Part shown: piece by piece, positions 33,584-46,898 of the stretch
Position numbering within the stretch: position 1 is the stretch's first letter
How the letters are laid out: the number at the start of each line of letters is the position of its first letter
Source: Hallella mizrahii
GTDB taxonomy: Bacteria; Bacteroidota; Bacteroidia; Bacteroidales; Bacteroidaceae
DNA length: 64,000 nucleotides
Assembly: GCF_009695775.1 (NCBI RefSeq)
Contig: NZ_VUNG01000002.1
Span: 1-64,000, forward strand
Direction of reading: 5' to 3'
Notes under the pieces: generated by a model
What the model saw: only the letters and a program-made list of their open reading frames with translations
Databases searched by the model: none
Told to the model about the DNA's origin: nothing
Made by a program: the position numbers and the translations under genes

Positions 33584-33630
33584 GCTGTTGCTGTCTCTGC
33601 AAAGGTAATCAATTTTTTTCTAATCACAAC
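33584..33630 (-). repeat. Solitary CRISPR repeat upstream of cas9
   Basis: This 47-base sequence matches the array repeat at 45 of 47 positions (differences at repeat positions 8 and 36) and has the same orientation as the array repeats. The minus-strand promoter elements of the repeat (TTG, 19 bases, TACCTTTG) are intact. It directly abuts the broken pectinase-like fragment starting at about 33632. It lies about 6.4 kb from the main array. Confidence 0.9.
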
Positions 33631-33967: not shown

Positions 33968-34044
33968 AAAAAAATGGGCGACTTGCGCCGCCCTCAAATG
34001 TTTTCACAACGGAATCATCCTTATTGTGATTAGCAAAAAATTAT
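33968..34044 (-). ncRNA. Predicted tracrRNA
   Basis: On the minus strand, a 19-base segment (plus 34024-34042) is exactly complementary to the 5' part of the crRNA repeat (TTGTGATTAGCAAAAAATT). It is followed by a short nexus-like hairpin (GGATGATTCC), then an unpaired GUUGUGAAAACAUUUGA-like linker, and a terminator stem GGGCGGC-GCAA-GTCGCCC (plus 33976-33993) with seven T residues (33968-33974). A promoter lies just upstream on the same strand (plus 34049-34079). Size is about 75 nt. This layout of anti-repeat, nexus and terminator hairpin is that of a type II-C tracrRNA. It would pair with crRNA and load into the Cas9 encoded divergently next to it. Confidence 0.85.
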
Positions 34045-34048
34045 GTGG

Positions 34049-34079
34049 CAAAGATAATAAAAAAAAAGATTCAATGCAA
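34049..34079 (-). promoter_or_regulatory. Promoter of the predicted tracrRNA
   Basis: On the minus strand, TTG (plus 34077-34079), a 20-base spacer and TATCTTTG (plus 34049-34056). The anti-repeat begins a few bases downstream of the -7 box, where transcription should start. Confidence 0.8.
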
Positions 34080-34133: not shown

Positions 34134-37100
34134 ATGAACAAGAAGATTATTGGACTTGACCTTGGAACAAATAGCATCGGCTGGGCTTTAGTCGAAAAGG
34201 ATACAGAGCAAAACGATGGTAAAATCATTGATGTCGGTAGCCGTATCATACCAATGCCCCAAGATGCCATCAGCAAGTATGAAACCGGCAACTTACAGTC
34301 GGCAGCTTCTGTGCGCACCGATTATCGTGGCATGCGCCGTCTTTATGAGCGAGCCGAGCTGCGCCGCTCACGTTTGTTACGCGTATTGAACATCTTAGGC
34401 TTTCTTCCAGAACATTATAGGGAAGCCATTGACTTTACCAACCACTTAGGTCAATTTAAAGACCACGGAGAGCCCTTGCTACCCTACAAGAGAAACGAGG
34501 AAGGAAAAAATGAATTTATCTTCAAAGACGCATTTCATGAGATGCTGGAAGATATGCGCACCCATCACCCAGAACTTGTTGCCAACGGCAAAAAGATACC
34601 TTACGACTGGACTATCTATTATCTGCGTAAGAAAGCTCTATCGCAATCCATCAGCAAAGAAGAATTGGCTTGGATCATTCTCAACTTCAATACGAAACGC
34701 GGTTATTACCAACTACGTGGGAAAGAAGAAGAGACCGCTACCAACGACAATCAAGTCTACGACGTGTTGGAAGTGTCTAATGTAGAAGAAACAGGGCCAA
34801 ATAATAAGAAGAAAGGCTATAACTGGTATTTAATACATTTTACTAATGGGAAAGTACAAAACCGTACTTGGAAAGAAGCACCCTGTCACATCGGCGATAA
34901 AGTAGAGTGCATCATCACCTATCAGGTAAAGAAAGACGGTTCACCCAAACTTGACGAGAATGGTGAGCAACTCTACAAAATTACAGCTCCCGACCCCAAT
35001 GACTGGACACTGAGGAAAAAGCGCACAGAATCCATCATCAACAATGAACATGTCACAGTAGGAGCATACATCTATGATCATTTGATGGAACATCCCGAAG
35101 ACAAGATACGGGGAAAGTATGTGCATACCATTGAACGCAAATATTATAAAGAGGAGCTGCGGATCATTCTTGACAAACAGAAAGAGTATATACCCGAGTT
35201 GCGTGACAAGGATCTACTGTCACAATGTATTTCTGAACTCTACCAAAATAACGAAGCGCACCGCAAGGCCTTGAATGACCAGGACTTCACACGCCTCTTC
35301 GTCGATGATATTATTTTCTATCAGCGCCCTCTGAAGAGCAAGAAGAGTCTCATTGCCGACTGTCCTTTAGAGTTCTACCCTTATAGAGACAAAGATGGAG
35401 TTTGGAAGCATCGCCCCATCAAATGTACGCCACGCTCCAATCCTCTCTTTCAAGAATTTCGACTCTGGCAGTTTATACAAAATCTGAGAATCTTTCTTCG
35501 TGAGCAAAAGGAGGAGGATGGGAAGTTGAAGTTAGATGTTGATGTCACCAACCAGTTCCTTTCAACCCCCGAGGACTATTGCGACCTCTTCGACTGGATG
35601 AAACAGAAGAGCGACATCACACAGAAACAGTTACTGGCATATCCTGCCTTCCATCTTGGGAAGAAGACAAAGGACTATCGATGGAATTATGTCGATGACG
35701 ACAAGCACACCTATCCCCTTTGCAGTACTCATCACGATATTTGTCAGGCACTGAAGAATGTTGATGGAGCGCCATCGCTCTCAACTGGGCAAGAGGAGAA
35801 CCTCTGGCACATTCTCTACTCTGTCGACGACCGATATGAATTGGAAAAAGCTCTTTGTCACTTTGCAGAAAAGTACAGTCTGGATAGCGAAAGCTTTGTC
35901 AACGCCTTCATGACGTTCAAACCATTTGATAACTCCTACGCCAGTTACTCCGAGAAAGCTATTAAAAAGATGTTACCCTTGATGCGTACCGGACGCTACT
36001 GGAACGTAGAAGGAATTGATTCACGCACTTTACAGAGGATCGAACATCTGATCACAGGTGAAGCCGATGACAACATCAGCAATAGTGTACGTGAGAAATG
36101 TCAGGGATTAGACCAGATAGAAAAATATCAGTTCCTGCCTGTATGGAAAGTCTGTTATGTGGTTTACAATCGCCACTCTGAAGCCATAGACACAGGACGT
36201 TGGTCATCACCCGAAGACATTGACAACTATCTGAAGAGTGAACTACGTCAAGGTTCTCTCCGCAACCCAGTTGTGGAAAGTGTCTTGACAGAGTCTCTGC
36301 GTGTCGTACGAGATGTTTGGAAACAATATGGTAAGCCTGAAGAGGTACATATAGAGATGGGGCGTGACCTGAAACAGAATAAAGCCCAACGCCAAAAGGC
36401 CAACAGTGCCATGCTTACCAACCAGCAAACCAACCTGCGTATCCGGTGCATGCTCCAGGAGTTTGCTGATCCAGAATTTCATATCGACAACGTCAGACCA
36501 CAATCACCCAGTCAGCAGGAGTTGCTAAAGATCTACGAGCAAGGAGTGCTTGACAGCACCGACAACATTCCCGACGACATCCAGACCATCATTGACCACA
36601 TTGGAGACAAGAACAAAGGCGCAAGCAGAAGCGACATGCTGCGTTATAAACTTTGGCTGGAACAAAAGTATCAATCCCCCTACACAGGCCAGCCCATCTC
36701 TCTATCCCGGCTCTTTACATCGGAATACGAGATTGAGCATGTCATCCCCCAAGCACGATATTTCGATGATTCACTAAACAATAAAGTCATCTGCGAAACG
36801 GAGGTAAATCGCGAAAAAGGCAGTATGCTCGCTTACGAATTCATCAAGTCCAAAGGCGGAATGATTGTAAAAGGTACTGGTGGGCGTCAATACAAGATCC
36901 TCGATACTGTACAGTATGAGGAATTTGTCAAAAGCCACTATTCCTCCAACAAGCGCAAGATGCGCAACCTGCTGCTTGATGACATTCCTGACAGTTTCAT
37001 CAGCAAGCAGCTTAACGACACTCGTTATATGGCTCGTAAGGCTTTGGATATATTCTCACATCTTGTGAGAGAGGAGCACAAAGACGATAGTGCCGTATCT

Positions 37101-38645
37101 AAGAATGTCATTGCATGCAATGGGGCTATCACAGACCGGTTAAAGAAAGACTGGGGCTTAAATGATGTTTGGAACGACATCGTAGCTCCACGCTTTGAGC
37201 GCATGAATGCCATTACTCACTCCACAGACTATGGCCAGTGGGTATGCAAAGAGGGTAAGCGCTATTTCCAAATCAACATCCCATTGGCTCTCTCCAAGGG
37301 ATTCAGCAAGAAACGCATAGACCATCGCCATCATGCCATGGATGCTATCGTCATTGCATGCACCACTCGCAACATCGTCAACTATCTCAACAATGCTTCA
37401 GGTGCAGACACAGAGGCACGCCATGATTTAAGAAACGCTGTATGCTTCAAGAATAAGAACGCTGATGGCAGTGGCAACTACCAATGGACAATAAAAAAGC
37501 CCTGGTGTACATTCACACAGGATGCACACACTACTCTCGACCATACTGTCGTGAGTTTCAAGCAGAATAACAGAATCATCACACAGACCTCCAACCGCTA
37601 TTGGCACTATAGCAACGGCAAAAAGGTTCTAGACCGACAAACGAAAGGCGACCATTGGGCTATAAGGAAGTCACTACACAAGGCAACCGTTTCTGGTGCT
37701 CTTTACATGCCAGAGAAGAAAAAAGTAAAACTTAAACTAGCACTGGAAGACATCAATGCCATTTGCAATGCAAAAGCCAGAAAAGTAATCCGACACATCA
37801 TCAACGAAACGTATCATGGTCATGTGGACAACGCCACGCTTCTGAAATACTTCAAAGCGAGAGACTATCTGATCAATGGCATCAACTTCAACACGCTAGA
37901 AATGAGAATCGTTCCTGCTCAGCCCAACTATACCGCATCAAGAGTGGCCCTTGACAGTACTTTCACCGAAAAAGATATTGAGAAGGTAACTGATACGGGC
38001 ATACAGTCTATTCTCAAACGCCATCTGGAACACTATATCGATGACAAGGGTAGATACGATTGTGCTGCCGCTTTCTCTCCGGAAGGAATTGACGAGATGA
38101 ACGAACATCTGACAGAGCTCAATGGCGGGAAGTCCCATAAGCCCATCTATAAGGTAAGGGAAAAAGAGACCATCGGATTAAAATTCAACATAGGGACAGC
38201 CGGCTTTAAGAATAAAAAGTTCGTGGAAGCAGACAAGGGTACGAACCTCTTCTATGCCGTTTATGCCGACAATGAAGGCAAGCGCTCTTTTGAGAGTATT
38301 CCACTCAACATGGCAATTGAGAGAAAGAAAAACAAGATGGATGTTGCCCCAGCTATGAATGCCAAGGGCGACAAGTTGCTGTTTGTTCTCTCACCGGGCG
38401 ATCTCGTCTACTTGCCCCAAGAAGGCGAACATGTTGCCCTGCCTTTGGATGAGAACCGTATCTATAAGATGGTGTCATGCTCAGTGGCACGCAGCTATTT
38501 TGTTCCATATTGTTCTGCATGTATGATTAGTGACAAAATAGAATATGGTCCACTCAACAAGATGGAACGTTCCTTGGATGGCATCATGATAAAGACCACA
38601 TGTATCAAGCTGAAAGTTGATCGTCTCGGACACATCAGTATCTGA
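34134..38645 (+). CDS. cas9: CRISPR-associated endonuclease Cas9 (type II-C)
   Basis: A 1503-residue RNA-guided DNA endonuclease. RuvC-I is at the N terminus (KKIIGLDLGTNSIGWALVE, Asp at 9). The arginine-rich bridge helix follows (RRLYERAELRRSRLLRVL). RuvC-II is near residue 740 (EEVHIEMGRDLK). The HNH domain is near 865-900 (YEIEHVIPQARYFDDSLNNK, then NREKG). RuvC-III is near 1063-1072 (DHRHHAMDAIVIA). The remaining roughly 430 residues should hold the PAM-interacting domain. All catalytic residues appear intact. It is large for II-C but like other Bacteroidota Cas9 proteins. With cas1 and cas2 next and no csn2 or cas4, subtype II-C is supported. Confidence 0.97.
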   Translation: MNKKIIGLDLGTNSIGWALVEKDTEQNDGKIIDVGSRIIPMPQDAISKYETGNLQSAASVRTDYRGMRRLYERAELRRSRLLRVLNILGFLPEHYREAIDFTNHLGQFKDHGEPLLPYKRNEEGKNEFIFKDAFHEMLEDMRTHHPELVANGKKIPYDWTIYYLRKKALSQSISKEELAWIILNFNTKRGYYQLRGKEEETATNDNQVYDVLEVSNVEETGPNNKKKGYNWYLIHFTNGKVQNRTWKEAPCHIGDKVECIITYQVKKDGSPKLDENGEQLYKITAPDPNDWTLRKKRTESIINNEHVTVGAYIYDHLMEHPEDKIRGKYVHTIERKYYKEELRIILDKQKEYIPELRDKDLLSQCISELYQNNEAHRKALNDQDFTRLFVDDIIFYQRPLKSKKSLIADCPLEFYPYRDKDGVWKHRPIKCTPRSNPLFQEFRLWQFIQNLRIFLREQKEEDGKLKLDVDVTNQFLSTPEDYCDLFDWMKQKSDITQKQLLAYPAFHLGKKTKDYRWNYVDDDKHTYPLCSTHHDICQALKNVDGAPSLSTGQEENLWHILYSVDDRYELEKALCHFAEKYSLDSESFVNAFMTFKPFDNSYASYSEKAIKKMLPLMRTGRYWNVEGIDSRTLQRIEHLITGEADDNISNSVREKCQGLDQIEKYQFLPVWKVCYVVYNRHSEAIDTGRWSSPEDIDNYLKSELRQGSLRNPVVESVLTESLRVVRDVWKQYGKPEEVHIEMGRDLKQNKAQRQKANSAMLTNQQTNLRIRCMLQEFADPEFHIDNVRPQSPSQQELLKIYEQGVLDSTDNIPDDIQTIIDHIGDKNKGASRSDMLRYKLWLEQKYQSPYTGQPISLSRLFTSEYEIEHVIPQARYFDDSLNNKVICETEVNREKGSMLAYEFIKSKGGMIVKGTGGRQYKILDTVQYEEFVKSHYSSNKRKMRNLLLDDIPDSFISKQLNDTRYMARKALDIFSHLVREEHKDDSAVSKNVIACNGAITDRLKKDWGLNDVWNDIVAPRFERMNAITHSTDYGQWVCKEGKRYFQINIPLALSKGFSKKRIDHRHHAMDAIVIACTTRNIVNYLNNASGADTEARHDLRNAVCFKNKNADGSGNYQWTIKKPWCTFTQDAHTTLDHTVVSFKQNNRIITQTSNRYWHYSNGKKVLDRQTKGDHWAIRKSLHKATVSGALYMPEKKKVKLKLALEDINAICNAKARKVIRHIINETYHGHVDNATLLKYFKARDYLINGINFNTLEMRIVPAQPNYTASRVALDSTFTEKDIEKVTDTGIQSILKRHLEHYIDDKGRYDCAAAFSPEGIDEMNEHLTELNGGKSHKPIYKVREKETIGLKFNIGTAGFKNKKFVEADKGTNLFYAVYADNEGKRSFESIPLNMAIERKKNKMDVAPAMNAKGDKLLFVLSPGDLVYLPQEGEHVALPLDENRIYKMVSCSVARSYFVPYCSACMISDKIEYGPLNKMERSLDGIMIKTTCIKLKVDRLGHISI

Positions 38646-38663: not shown

Positions 38664-39931
<1,268 letters not shown>

Positions 39932-39939
39932 AAATACAA

Positions 39940-39971
39940 AAGGGATTCCCACCCACAAGCGAGAATCCCTT
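39940..39971. terminator. Bidirectional hairpin between cas2 and array
   Basis: AAGGGATTC (39940-39948) and GAATCCCTT (39963-39971) form a nine-base stem. It could stop the cas transcript on the plus strand and array transcripts arriving on the minus strand. T-tracts on either side are short. Confidence 0.65.
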
Positions 39972-40045
39972 CCTTCATCAACTCCGCTTTTTCTTTTCTA
40001 CTCTTTGTATTAACTCTTTATTGTTCAACGCATTAAAACATTTGA

Positions 40046-42936
40046 GCTGTTGATGTCTCTGCAAAGGTAATCAATTTTTTGCTAATCACAACAAAAAGCA
40101 CCTCCCAAGCTTAGAAGTGCACGCTGTTGATGTCTCTGCAAAGGTAATCAATTTTTTGCTAATCACAACAGGATGCCGTGCGCAACTTCTCGATGCGCTG
40201 CTGTTGATGTCTCTGCAAAGGTAATCAATTTTTTGCTAATCACAACAGCTCGCCTTGATCACTTCCACCCACGATAGCTGTTGATGTCTCTGCAAAGGTA
40301 ATCAATTTTTTGCTAATCACAACGAAGGAAAGCCTTACATGCTGGTAGGCGGAGCTGTTGATGTCTCTGCAAAGGTAATCAATTTTTTGCTAATCACAAC
40401 CCCTTTTTCCCTTGGAATTGCTGTATCACAGCTGTTGATGTCTCTGCAAAGGTAATCAATTTTTTGCTAATCACAACTAACTCGCCGTGTCCTGTAAATT
40501 TCATAGCTGTTGATGTCTCTGCAAAGGTAATCAATTTTTTGCTAATCACAACCGGGAGCGGTCTTTGTTGCCGCCCCCGCTTGCTGTTGATGTCTCTGCA
40601 AAGGTAATCAATTTTTTGCTAATCACAACAATGACCGGCGCGGTGATCAGTTCCTTTGGCTGTTGATGTCTCTGCAAAGGTAATCAATTTTTTGCTAATC
40701 ACAACGCTCTCAATGAGTCTGAAGGTCGTAAATTGGCTGTTGATGTCTCTGCAAAGGTAATCAATTTTTTGCTAATCACAACGGTGTTGACCTTGCGTCC
40801 CTGGTCGGTGCTGCTGTTGATGTCTCTGCAAAGGTAATCAATTTTTTGCTAATCACAACATGGTGGGGGCGGTTGTTGGATTCCGTTTGCTGTTGATGTC
40901 TCTGCAAAGGTAATCAATTTTTTGCTAATCACAACCTACCTACCACGCAGCGCAAACGGAATCCAGCTGTTGATGTCTCTGCAAAGGTAATCAATTTTTT
41001 GCTAATCACAACCAGGGATGATGACCAGCTTCTCAATTTTCCGCTGTTGATGTCTCTGCAAAGGTAATCAATTTTTTGCTAATCACAACGCCTCTATATG
41101 TTGGATGCGTGCGCAAATAGCTGTTGATGTCTCTGCAAAGGTAATCAATTTTTTGCTAATCACAACGAATTGCTTGCTGCTCTTAAGGCCTCTGGGGCTG
41201 TTGATGTCTCTGCAAAGGTAATCAATTTTTTGCTAATCACAACATATTCTTGCACTACACAATTTAAGAGAGTGCTGTTGATGTCTCTGCAAAGGTAATC
41301 AATTTTTTGCTAATCACAACGTGTTCTCGCAACACATCCAGACGACCGCCAGCTGTTGATGTCTCTGCAAAGGTAATCAATTTTTTGCTAATCACAACGG
41401 AATCATGCGTTTGGTTAATCCTGCCGCAGCTGTTGATGTCTCTGCAAAGGTAATCAATTTTTTGCTAATCACAACGTGCCAGGCGGGTCAATGGTGGTGT
41501 TCTTAGCTGTTGATGTCTCTGCAAAGGTAATCAATTTTTTGCTAATCACAACAAGCCCGACTTGTGAAAGCCGGGCTTTTTTGCTGTTGATGTCTCTGCA
41601 AAGGTAATCAATTTTTTGCTAATCACAACGTCTTGGACTCCAAGAAATTGCTTCAGAAAGCTGTTGATGTCTCTGCAAAGGTAATCAATTTTTTGCTAAT
41701 CACAACTAAGTAGTTGATTTTTCATAACAGTATTTAGCTGTTGATGTCTCTGCAAAGGTAATCAATTTTTTGCTAATCACAACTGGAGAGAGTGGAGAAA
41801 AATTAGAATGGAGGCTGTTGATGTCTCTGCAAAGGTAATCAATTTTTTGCTAATCACAACTGAATTAAAGGTTATGTGAAAGTATGGTTGGCTGTTGATG
41901 TCTCTGCAAAGGTAATCAATTTTTTGCTAATCACAACACAGAAAATAAAATAGTAAAAAAATGAAATGCTGTTGATGTCTCTGCAAAGGTAATCAATTTT
42001 TTGCTAATCACAACGCTTTGTTATCTGCTCTGCCGTGTCTTCATGCTGTTGATGTCTCTGCAAAGGTAATCAATTTTTTGCTAATCACAACCAATATCCT
42101 TTGGCAATGTCGGCAGAGGTCGCTGTTGATGTCTCTGCAAAGGTAATCAATTTTTTGCTAATCACAACCTGCCGCAAGAATGTCCTCTGCGCTACGACGC
42201 TGTTGATGTCTCTGCAAAGGTAATCAATTTTTTGCTAATCACAACGCCTGAGAAAGACGGTGAGCAAGGACAAGTGTTGTTGATGTCTCTGCAAAGGTAA
42301 TCAATTTTTTGCTAATCACAACGCAATCTTTATTGCCATATTATTTGATGTGTTGTTGATGTCTCTGCAAAGGTAATCAATTTTTTGCTAATCAAAACGC
42401 AAGCTGCACTTGAATACTGGTCAAGTGCGTTGTTGATGTCTCTGCAAAGGTAATCAATTTTTTGCTAATCACAACGTGTCTACTGGTACTCCTCAATCTC
42501 CTAGGTTGTTGATGTCTCTGCAAAGGTAATCAATTTTTTGCTAATCACAACAGGCAAGTGAGGAAACCATAATGATCATTTGTTGTTGATGTCTCTGCAA
42601 AGGTAATCAATTTTTTGCTAATCACAACAGTTTTCTGTAGCGGTTCATGCAGTGATGCGTTGTTGATGTCTCTGCAAAGGTAATCAATTTTTTGCTAATC
42701 ACAACGTATAGCGTTTATACTCCGTGCTGCGCGTCGTTGTTGATGTCTCTGCAAAGGTAATCAATTTTTTGCTAATCACAACGACGTTGAAACAGGACCG
42801 AGAGACGGCAAGTTGTTGATGTCTCTGCAAAGGTAATCAATTTTTTGCTAATCACAACAAAACAACGTAACTATCACTAAGATTGTAAGCTGTTGATGTC
42901 TCTGCAAGAGGTAATCAATTCTTTCCTAATCACAAC
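40046..42936 (-). CRISPR. CRISPR array, 38 repeats, 37 spacers, type II-C
   Basis: The repeat is 47 bases, on the plus strand beginning GYTGTTGATGTCTCTGC and ending GCTAATCACAAC. Spacers are 28-31 bases, mostly 30. I counted 38 repeats by position, from 40046 to 42889. Repeats 1-29 have C at position 2, repeats 30-37 have T, and repeat 31 also has one change near its end. The last repeat (42889-42936) is degenerate with an extra base and several changes. On the minus strand the repeat begins GTTGTGATTAGC, the usual 5' end of type II repeats, and pairs with the predicted tracrRNA. Each repeat also carries a minus-strand promoter: TTG, 19 bases, TACCTTTG. crRNAs are therefore expected on the minus strand, toward the cas genes. 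Confidence 0.98.
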
Positions 42937-42982: not shown

Positions 42983-43016
42983 AAAAGCCCTGGCACGGCT
43001 CAGTGTCGGGGCTTTT
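42983..43016. terminator. Terminator of the GH5 gene
   Basis: AAAAGCCC (42983-42990) and GGGCTTTT (43009-43016) form a stem with extra GG/CC-type pairing inside. On the minus strand it follows the stop of the GH5 gene by about 35 bases. It also separates that gene from the array. Confidence 0.75.
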
Positions 43017-46492: not shown

Positions 46493-46501
46493 CTTCAAAT
46501 G

Positions 46502-46898
46502 TGGAGCTGGTGGGATTCGAACCCACGTCCAAACAGGGAAACCATACGCTTTCTACACGTTTATTCCAGCCTTTGGTTTTCGTGCGACGGCAAGACCTGG
46601 ACCACCAACCGGCGCCTTAGCCTCTAAATTTTCATCCTGCCGTCGAGGCCCGACAAGACTATTTCCGATTTATCTGCACCGCTTGATCCTCAGATTCGGA
46701 ACAACATCCTTGGAGCGATGTCTCGTCCCATCATCTGATGACGGGATTGAGCCAGTAATCTACTGTACTTCGATTAGGCAGCGAGAGCGTAATTGTTTTC
46801 GCCAATTAAATTTTTGTTCACTCAGATTAAAGAGCTAGCCAACGAGGCTCTGCGTGCTTACGTACCATCTCAGCCTGCTGTCAAATCCAGTCAACCCC
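46502..46898 (-). ncRNA. ssrA: Transfer-messenger RNA
   Basis: This RNA rescues stalled ribosomes and tags incomplete proteins. On the minus strand it begins GGGGTTGACTGGATTTGACA and ends in a T-arm with GGTTCGAATCCCACC and acceptor CAGCTCCA. The 5' and 3' ends pair as an acceptor stem. The tag frame (plus 46774-46803) reads GENNYALAA and stop, like tags known from Bacteroidales. The length of about 397 nt is normal. A full promoter precedes it and a terminator follows. Confidence 0.96.

What the first reader, a model, noticed from the sequence alone, without database searches (positions are those of the whole stretch)
40046..42936. Every CRISPR repeat carries its own Bacteroidota-type promoter on the minus strand
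Seen directly: the minus strand of the repeat holds TTG at repeat bases 2-4, a 19-base gap and TACCTTTG at bases 24-31, a full match to the Bacteroidota promoter (TTG/TTTG, 19-20 bases, TAnnTTTG) that also occurs before many genes in this window. Transcription would start about ten bases before each spacer and give single crRNA units, as described for Neisseria and Campylobacter II-C arrays but built with a different sigma-factor consensus. All 37 regular repeats keep these bases. The array would run against the cas operon and would need no leader promoter. Whether this is already described for Bacteroidota II-C loci is not known to me.
Basis: partly seen in the sequence, partly recalled or inferred. 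Interest (0 to 1): 0.72.

Follow-up and report, generated by a model that had tools for sequence, protein, structure and literature searches.

The report
CRISPR repeats carrying their own promoters
Nearly every repeat of this CRISPR-Cas9 array contains a complete match to the promoter sequence used by its phylum (Bacteroidota), so each spacer is predicted to be transcribed from its own start site, and the same repeat design recurs in many related bacteria.

Summary
In detail: 36 of 37 regular repeats carry TTG-N19-TACCTTTG on the minus strand, and all 37 keep TACCTTTG. The minus strand is the crRNA strand: a tracrRNA gene found here (34044-33968, minus) pairs with repeat bases 1-24 at most, so the promoter's -7 box (24-31) lies almost wholly outside that duplex. 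This genome uses such promoters, with TTG 19-20 bases before TAnnTTTG. Among 120 Cas9 sequences, 34 of 59 loci with 46-48-nt repeats have the strict promoter, against 0 of 42 with 36-nt repeats; in the window's family it is 32 of 38, 0.06 expected. All 46 relaxed-box arrays run against cas9, old end 5'. Family arrays with 36-nt repeats run with cas9 and have a box in the flank behind cas2 instead (12 of 14). Three of 8 box-broken arrays have an external promoter, against 2 of 70. Prior art: II-C repeat promoters in Campylobacter and Neisseria; a TTG-only proposal in Flavobacterium; a Riemerella paper reported none. No RNA was measured. Interpretation supported; new variant of a known kind.

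The parts
40046..42936 (-). CRISPR array, 37 repeats of 47 nt plus a degenerate terminal repeat; spacers 28-31 nt
40062..40091 (-). promoter match TTG-N19-TACCTTTG in the repeat nearest cas2 (one of 36 such)
42352..42398 (-). the one regular repeat with TTT instead of TTG; box intact
42889..42936 (-). degenerate terminal repeat (5' end of the crRNA strand, likely the oldest), box interrupted by one inserted base
33968..34044 (-). predicted tracrRNA: anti-repeat AATTTTTTGCTAATCACAATAAGG, hairpin, terminator GGGCGGCGCAAGTCGCCC-A-T7
   Evidence: relatives
34049..34079 (-). predicted tracrRNA promoter TTG-N20-TATCTTTG
34134..38645 (+). cas9 (TIGR01865, 426.5 bits)
38664..39599 (+). cas1 (TIGR03639, type II)
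39596..39931 (+). cas2 (TIGR01573)
39938..39973 (-). terminator-like hairpin 72 nt beyond the last repeat, 16 pairs, -22.4 kcal/mol; would end array transcripts before cas2
42983..43016 (.). hairpin between the upstream minus-strand gene and the array; the scan scored 14 pairs as terminator-like on the plus strand and a 5-pair version on the minus strand
33584..33630 (-). orphan repeat copy with the full promoter match

Best explanation
Almost every 47-nt repeat of this type II-C array contains a complete match to the Bacteroidota housekeeping promoter (TTG, 19 bases, TACCTTTG) on the crRNA strand, and this likely starts a separate pre-crRNA about ten bases before each spacer. Shown: motif, strand, genome-wide promoter use, conservation in relatives, array polarity. 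Inferred: RNA polymerase with the primary sigma factor would bind each repeat and start near repeat bases 35-38. Transcripts would run through spacer and following repeat(s) towards the cas2 side and stop at the terminator at 39973-39938. tracrRNA, from its own promoter of the same type, would pair with repeat bases 1-24 at most for 3'-end trimming (RNase III, by analogy). Because new spacers appear to enter at the 3' end of the transcribed strand, a promoter in each repeat would give a new spacer its own start at once, where a single promoter at the old end would reach it last.
For: Motif in 36 of 37 repeats and genome-wide enrichment at gaps 19-20. crRNA strand fixed by tracrRNA. No TTG-N19/20-TAnnTTTG in the 250 nt of 5' flank (the window is not among the five arrays with one), and hairpins on both sides. 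Strict motif ([T/C]TG, gap 19-20, TAnnTTTG) in 34 of 59 loci with 46-48-nt repeats against 0 of 42 with 36-nt repeats; exact TTG-N19-TAnnTTTG in 32 of 38 47-nt loci of the window's family, 0.06 expected from shuffles. In 36 loci on the Cas9 tree, changes per column are 2.5 in the box, 5.8 in bases 13-23 and 11.0 in bases 32-42 (one-sided p 0.0011). Named set: 29 of 42 loci with TAnnTTTG at gap 17-22. Polarity: 46 of 46 arrays with a relaxed box opposite to cas9; of 38 complete ones the 5' end is the degenerate end in 24, the 3' end in 0, tie in 14. In the window's family the box is in the flank, not the repeat, in 12 of 14 co-directional 36-nt arrays. Box-broken repeats: 3 of 8 have an external promoter against 2 of 70 (one-sided Fisher p 0.0066; same pattern on the other strand of the flanks: 2 of 78).
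Against: No transcript data. Six of 38 family loci depart from the exact motif and three have a broken box (L139, L154, L158); in the named set so does L211, with 58% Cas9 identity to the window. Five of 8 box-broken arrays show no external promoter in 250 nt. The tree-corrected test of that link is underpowered (2 pairs for, 0 against, 4 undecided; p 0.5). Running against cas9 is not special to box-bearing arrays: 17 of 17 other 44-48-nt arrays and 21 arrays with 36-nt repeats do so too. Several repeats from outside the window's family have weakened boxes (TATTTTTA, TTTCTTTG), and in the phylum-wide gapped alignment the box columns are not quieter than bases 13-21. In 7 of 52 loci a loose pairing count with tracrRNA runs past base 24, and the window cofold also pairs repeat bases 31-36 with letters of the tracrRNA's own -7 box, upstream of its predicted start. 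A Riemerella study reported no promoter in its 47-nt repeats (PMC5006608).
Confidence: 0.8

Rival explanations
1. The box is an inner repeat signal for spacer integration by Cas1-Cas2 (a ruler or anchor motif), and its likeness to a promoter is incidental.
For: Inner repeat motifs guide integration in other types (recalled). Terminal bases 1-7 and 43-45 are the most conserved, as expected for integration ends.
Against: Arrays with a broken box still hold many repeats with diverse spacers (L139 21, L154 7; L211 16). The box slides (gaps 18-22) and matches the host promoter, including the preferred C before TTTG (33 of 55 genome sites; 34 of 42 repeats). Box loss goes with an external promoter more often than box keeping does.
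Confidence: 0.08
2. Bases 24-31 are conserved because they pair with tracrRNA or bind Cas9.
For: The repeat 5' half pairs with tracrRNA and is the most conserved part. A loose pairing count passes base 24 in 7 of 52 loci.
Against: The pairing ends at base 20 in 17 of 52 loci and at base 24 or before in 45 of 52. In the window the main helix ends at base 21 (cofold) or 24. A TAnnTTTG promoter just upstream of the anti-repeat (full promoter in 30 of 52) would cap the tracrRNA there.
Confidence: 0.05
3. The array is transcribed from outside (read-through or an unrecognised promoter) and the repeat motif is a weak or silent relic kept by shared descent.
For: Five box-broken arrays without a visible external promoter must be transcribed somehow, if they are. 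RNA evidence for F. columnare is thin (8 reads; PMC8092290).
Against: Hairpins flank the window array, with 46 bp free upstream and no promoter match in the 250 nt there. Box columns change less than neighbouring columns on the Cas9 tree of the family, which descent alone does not explain.
Confidence: 0.07

Closest known systems
Type II-C arrays of Campylobacter jejuni (PMC3656092, passages read) and Neisseria meningitidis (recalled, and as cited in PMC5006608 and PMC8092290)
   Same: a promoter in every repeat, crRNA units started singly; II-C newest spacers at the last repeat (PMC12080349, passages)
   Different: in C. jejuni an extended -10 box closes the repeat and RNA starts at position five of the spacer; here the box is the Bacteroidota -7 element at bases 24-31 of a 47-nt repeat, with the start predicted about ten bases before the spacer
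Flavobacterium columnare and F. psychrophilum II-C arrays (PMC8092290, PMC10309648; passages read)
   Same: repeat-encoded promoter proposed, transcription towards the variable (leader) end
   Different: the proposal rests on TTG alone; in the passages read the -7 box is not named in the repeat. The F. columnare repeat is 36 bp, and 0 of 42 loci with 36-nt repeats here have the strict promoter, though 34 of 42 have TTG
Riemerella anatipestifer CRISPR1 (PMC5006608; passages read)
   Same: 47-nt repeats, 16-nt anti-repeat TGAAAGCAATTCACAA, leader next to cas2, newest spacers there
   Different: authors found no promoter in the repeats and predicted leader promoters; the promoter tool named in the methods passage (for leaders) was BDGP
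II-C extraneous-crRNA study (PMC12080349; passages and outline read)
   Same: upstream terminators and mutated first repeats insulating II-C arrays, as seen at 42983-43016 and 42889-42936
   Different: the searched terms Bacteroid and Flavobacteri do not occur in its main text

Membership tests
type II-C CRISPR-Cas | Cas9, type II Cas1 and Cas2 only | tested here: met
   NCBIfam matches; no listed ORF of 80 aa or more between cas2 (ends 39931) and the array
type II-C CRISPR-Cas | tracrRNA with an anti-repeat | tested here: met
   34044-33968 minus; cofold with the repeat -29.7 kcal/mol, which includes six pairs with letters upstream of the predicted start
repeat-encoded-promoter II-C arrays (Campylobacter/Neisseria kind) | host promoter consensus inside each repeat on the crRNA strand | tested here: met
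   36 of 37 repeats, genome consensus
repeat-encoded-promoter II-C arrays (Campylobacter/Neisseria kind) | old end at the 5' side, new spacers at the 3' side of the transcribed strand | tested here: met
   degenerate repeat at 42889-42936; of 38 complete relaxed-box arrays 24 likewise, 0 opposite, 14 ties
repeat-encoded-promoter II-C arrays (Campylobacter/Neisseria kind) | primary RNA 5' ends at each repeat/spacer | not testable with these tools
   no RNA data
repeat-encoded-promoter II-C arrays (Campylobacter/Neisseria kind) | crRNA 5' ends made without RNase III | not testable with these tools
   no RNA data
Bacteroidota sigma-ABfr promoter | TTG near -33 and TAnnTTTG near -7, gap 19-20 | tested here: met
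   elements as given in PMC7366714 (TTTG and TAnnTTTG); the gap is
Bacteroidota sigma-ABfr promoter | start site a few bases after the -7 box | not testable with these tools
   predicted only

The most novel reading that the evidence does not exclude
In the window's family the promoter's place and the array's direction evolve as one unit. Type II-C loci come in two builds: reversed arrays with 47-nt repeats, each a complete sigma-ABfr promoter, and forward arrays with 36-nt repeats driven by one box behind cas2. Lineages that lose the repeat box have repeatedly gained a single upstream promoter instead. On this view the long Bacteroidota repeat is built around its promoter. (Outside the family, 29 arrays with 36-nt repeats fit neither build.)
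Probability: 0.55. Interest if true: 0.66.

Novelty: new variant of a known kind. Interest (0 to 1): 0.56.

Why it matters
It would give a sequence rule for crRNA expression in a phylum that dominates the gut, and would bear on a published negative (Riemerella, PMC5006608). It replaces an uninformative TTG argument with a testable two-part promoter. It predicts which Bacteroidota arrays transcribe every spacer independently and which depend on one promoter. It also warns that such repeats may be promoters wherever they land (orphan repeats, engineered arrays).

Tried and rejected
Orientation by the orphan repeat at 33584-33630: at first it looked like the tracrRNA anti-repeat, but it lies in the array's own orientation; the tracrRNA was found at 34044-33968. 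Protospacers to fix the strand by PAM: none in phages or plasmids (one 81-82% piece each), and none for two spacers in viral contigs. The phylum-wide gapped alignment did not separate box from bases 13-21. Shared spacers with the nearest relative (97% Cas9): none between 36 window spacers and 12 intervals of the 4.5 kb read, which has masked stretches. Literature: 10 searches of 10 used. Within what I saw of them, no paper names a TAnnTTTG box in a CRISPR repeat: one search listed 4 papers with TAnnTTTG, CRISPR and repeat, and I read passages of two (PMC10309648, PMC7366714); the other two I saw in the listing only.

Rows dropped before counts: L056 (fetched fragment, not examined); arrays with a consensus outside the stated lengths; L149's second hit (not a CRISPR repeat). 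L157 was turned by hand because its consensus was cut at the 5' end; it counted as the one array of 51 not opposite to cas9. L119's consensus is cut and counts among the 36-nt loci. One search skipped L226, L267, L221's second array, L157 and L149's second hit by its orientation score. In one search, 32 of 80 named loci gave no array, L226 and L260 had a hit skipped, and L267 (one of the three not opposite, and the one with a degenerate 3' end) is most likely turned the wrong way by my score. One search used 76 of the 78 repeats and the last 520 well-filled alignment columns.

Full report
OBSERVATION. The array at 40046-42936 has 37 regular 47-nt repeats and a degenerate terminal one. On the minus strand 29 read GTTGTGATTAGCAAAAAATTGATTACCTTTGCAGAGACATCAACAGC, seven have A for G at base 46, and one has that change and TTT for TTG. 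TTG (2-4), 19 bases, TACCTTTG (24-31) is intact in 36 of 37, and TACCTTTG in 37 of 37. The terminal repeat has one base inserted in the box.

IS IT A PROMOTER OF THIS GENOME? TTG-N19/20-TAnnTTTG occurs 652 times in 3.92 Mb (array included), against 58 for the reversed pattern. In 400 kb of the genome, TAnnTTTG is sevenfold denser between genes (152 in 52 kb) than in genes (147 in 348 kb; crude ORF call). TTG before intergenic boxes peaks at gaps 19 (17) and 20 (38), other gaps from 12 to 27 giving 0-6. TACCTTTG is the box in 5 of the 55 sites with gap 19 or 20. Gap 19, used by the array, is the second choice. The published elements (TTTG near -33, TAnnTTTG near -7) are given in PMC7366714 (passages and one section read).

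STRAND. It is complementary to the minus-strand repeat, so the minus strand is the crRNA strand. Its main helix covers repeat bases 1-21 (cofold), or up to 24 by a loose count. The cofold also pairs repeat bases 31-36 with letters of the tracrRNA's own -7 box, which lie upstream of its predicted start. Over 52 loci with this tracrRNA family the loose pairing ends at base 24 or before in 45, most often at base 20 (17), and beyond 24 in 7; the tracrRNA's own TTG-N17-22-TAnnTTTG is present in 30 of 52. So pairing explains little of the box.

RELATIVES. Cas9 loci were sought in 301 family and 395 phylum genomes (106 and 65 over the cut-off). I chose 120 loci by hand; 119 plus the window were examined. 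One array per locus: with 46-48-nt repeats the strict motif ([T/C]TG, gap 19-20, TAnnTTTG) is in 34 of 59 and a TAnnTT core at gaps 18-21 in 45 of 59; with 36-nt repeats 0 of 42 and 2 of 42. TAnnTTTG at other gaps occurs in four 36-nt repeats (L080 gap 21; L082, L085, L086 gap 16). In the 38 family loci with 47-nt repeats 32 have exactly TTG-N19-TAnnTTTG (0.06 expected from shuffles of bases 5-47). The six others: broken box (L139, L154, L158), gap 21 (L165 with TATCTTAG, L188), CTG for TTG (L176). Fewest changes per column on a Cas9 tree (36 loci): box 2.5, inner nn 4.5, bases 13-23 5.8, bases 32-42 11.0; box against 13-23 and 32-42, one-sided p 0.0011. With 42 phylum-wide ungapped 47-nt loci p is 0.024. 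In a gapped alignment of 56 phylum-wide repeats the box is quieter than bases 32-42 but not than bases 13-21. A second, named set (80 loci) gave 42 loci with 44-48-nt arrays: TAnnTTTG at gap 17-22 in 29, gap 19-20 in 21, relaxed box in 35. Strict boxes occur there in Bacteroides, Phocaeicola, Parabacteroides, Prevotella, Alloprevotella, Butyricimonas, Capnocytophaga, Thermophagus and Lentimicrobium. The two sets overlap in part.

POLARITY. In the first set 46 of 46 arrays with a relaxed box run opposite to cas9, as do 17 of 17 other 44-48-nt arrays. Of the 38 complete relaxed-box ones the degenerate end is 5' in 24, 3' in 0, tie in 14. In the named set 39 of 42 are opposite, and of 33 complete ones 22 are 5', 1 is 3', 10 tie. 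New spacers thus appear to enter at the 3' end, next to cas2. By contrast the 14 family arrays with 36-nt repeats run with cas9. Their 3' end is the degenerate one in 9 of 14 (0 opposite, 5 ties), and 12 of 14 have TAnnTTTG in the 160 nt before the array (control strand 1 of 14), ten of them directly behind a TAG or TAA that I read by eye as the cas2 stop. These leader boxes lack a TTG at gap 17-22, so that promoter is predicted with less support. Complete 47-nt family arrays have a flank box in 10 of 30, four of them (L130, L153, L161, L167) at 53-54 nt, the place of a degenerate repeat. Against a general rule: outside the family 21 arrays with 36-nt repeats run opposite to cas9 with no flank box (0 of 15 complete), and 8 run with cas9 with neither box nor degenerate 3' end.

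NATURAL EXPERIMENT. Over both sets, 78 distinct 44-50-nt repeats had 250 nt of 5' flank. A full external promoter (degenerate repeats excluded) precedes 3 of 8 arrays whose box has three or more of six key bases wrong (L139 at 38 nt, L154 at 111, L211 at 122) and 2 of 70 others (L189, L257); one-sided Fisher p 0.0066; the same pattern on the other strand occurs in 2 of 78. Five of the 8 have none; in L093, L254 and L286 a near-box lies beyond the searched gap (64 sequences, read by eye). Box loss is independent each time on the tree (7 changes for 7 rows), but the tree-corrected sign test cannot reach significance. L285, box-broken and without an external promoter, runs with cas9 close behind it and could be read through.

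INSULATION. In the window a hairpin (42983-43016) lies between the upstream minus-strand gene and the array; the scan scores it with 14 pairs on the plus strand and as a 5-pair version on the minus strand. It leaves 46 bp before the array. Another (39973-39938 minus, 16 pairs, -22.4 kcal/mol) lies 72 nt beyond the last repeat. In 77 arrays a terminator-like hairpin is in the 3' flank of 55 (crRNA sense) or 43 (other strand), against 14 and 18 in the 5' flank. It may serve the cas operon as well.

PRIOR ART. Repeat promoters in C. jejuni II-C were mapped in 2013 (PMC3656092, passages). For F. columnare a repeat promoter was proposed from TTG 33 bp before the spacer, with eight reads, running towards the leader (PMC8092290, passages). 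For F. psychrophilum the same motif was used; the array halves were transcribed and TAnnTTTG was named for cas9 only in what I read (PMC10309648, passages). TTG is part of the GTTG end of 34 of 42 loci with 36-nt repeats, so it proves little. The Riemerella paper states that no potential promoter was found in its 47-nt repeats (PMC5006608, passages); its repeat letters were not in the text I read, so I could not test it, but its anti-repeat matches this repeat class. A B. fragilis survey gives 47-bp II-C repeats and no obvious promoter in the type I-B leader (PMC5704556, passages).

VERDICT. The sequence evidence supports a promoter in each repeat. Transcription start sites, sigma-factor use and processing are inferred.

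Noticed in passing
window 33584-33630: Solitary repeat copy with an intact promoter match, reading away from cas9 on the minus strand, with no second repeat behind it.
   Followed up: partly
window 42889-42936: The terminal repeat has one base inserted in its box, so the spacer next to it would lack its own promoter; the nearest relative (L290) shares the variant terminal repeat but has the box intact.
   Followed up: yes
L290 against window 40046-42936: A genome with 97% identical Cas9 and near-identical array flanks shares none of 36 window spacers in the stretch read (12 intervals, some masked): fast spacer turnover.
   Followed up: partly
repeat bases 32-42 in 47-nt repeats: An 11-base stretch after the box is the most variable part of the repeat; it would hold the start of the RNA. 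Why it exists is unexplained; L098 and L104 have the same tracrRNA family and a near-box in 36-nt repeats without it.
   Followed up: no
3' flanks of 46-48-nt arrays, for example L135, L178, L217: A hairpin often sits 95-99 nt from the last repeat; the fixed distance suggests a role in spacer integration or a shared terminator.
   Followed up: partly
L284: Parabacteroides locus with the array on the other side of tracrRNA and cas9, running with cas9 but with the box kept (gap 21).
   Followed up: partly
L071-L076, L113, L114, L121: 36-nt repeats opposite to cas9 without a Bacteroidota box end in TACATT, TAGATT or GATATT, reminiscent of the -10 at the repeat end in Campylobacter (GGTAAAAT, PMC3656092).
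   Followed up: no
window 46499-46898: tmRNA on the minus strand (Rfam RF00023, 138.9 bits).
   Followed up: no
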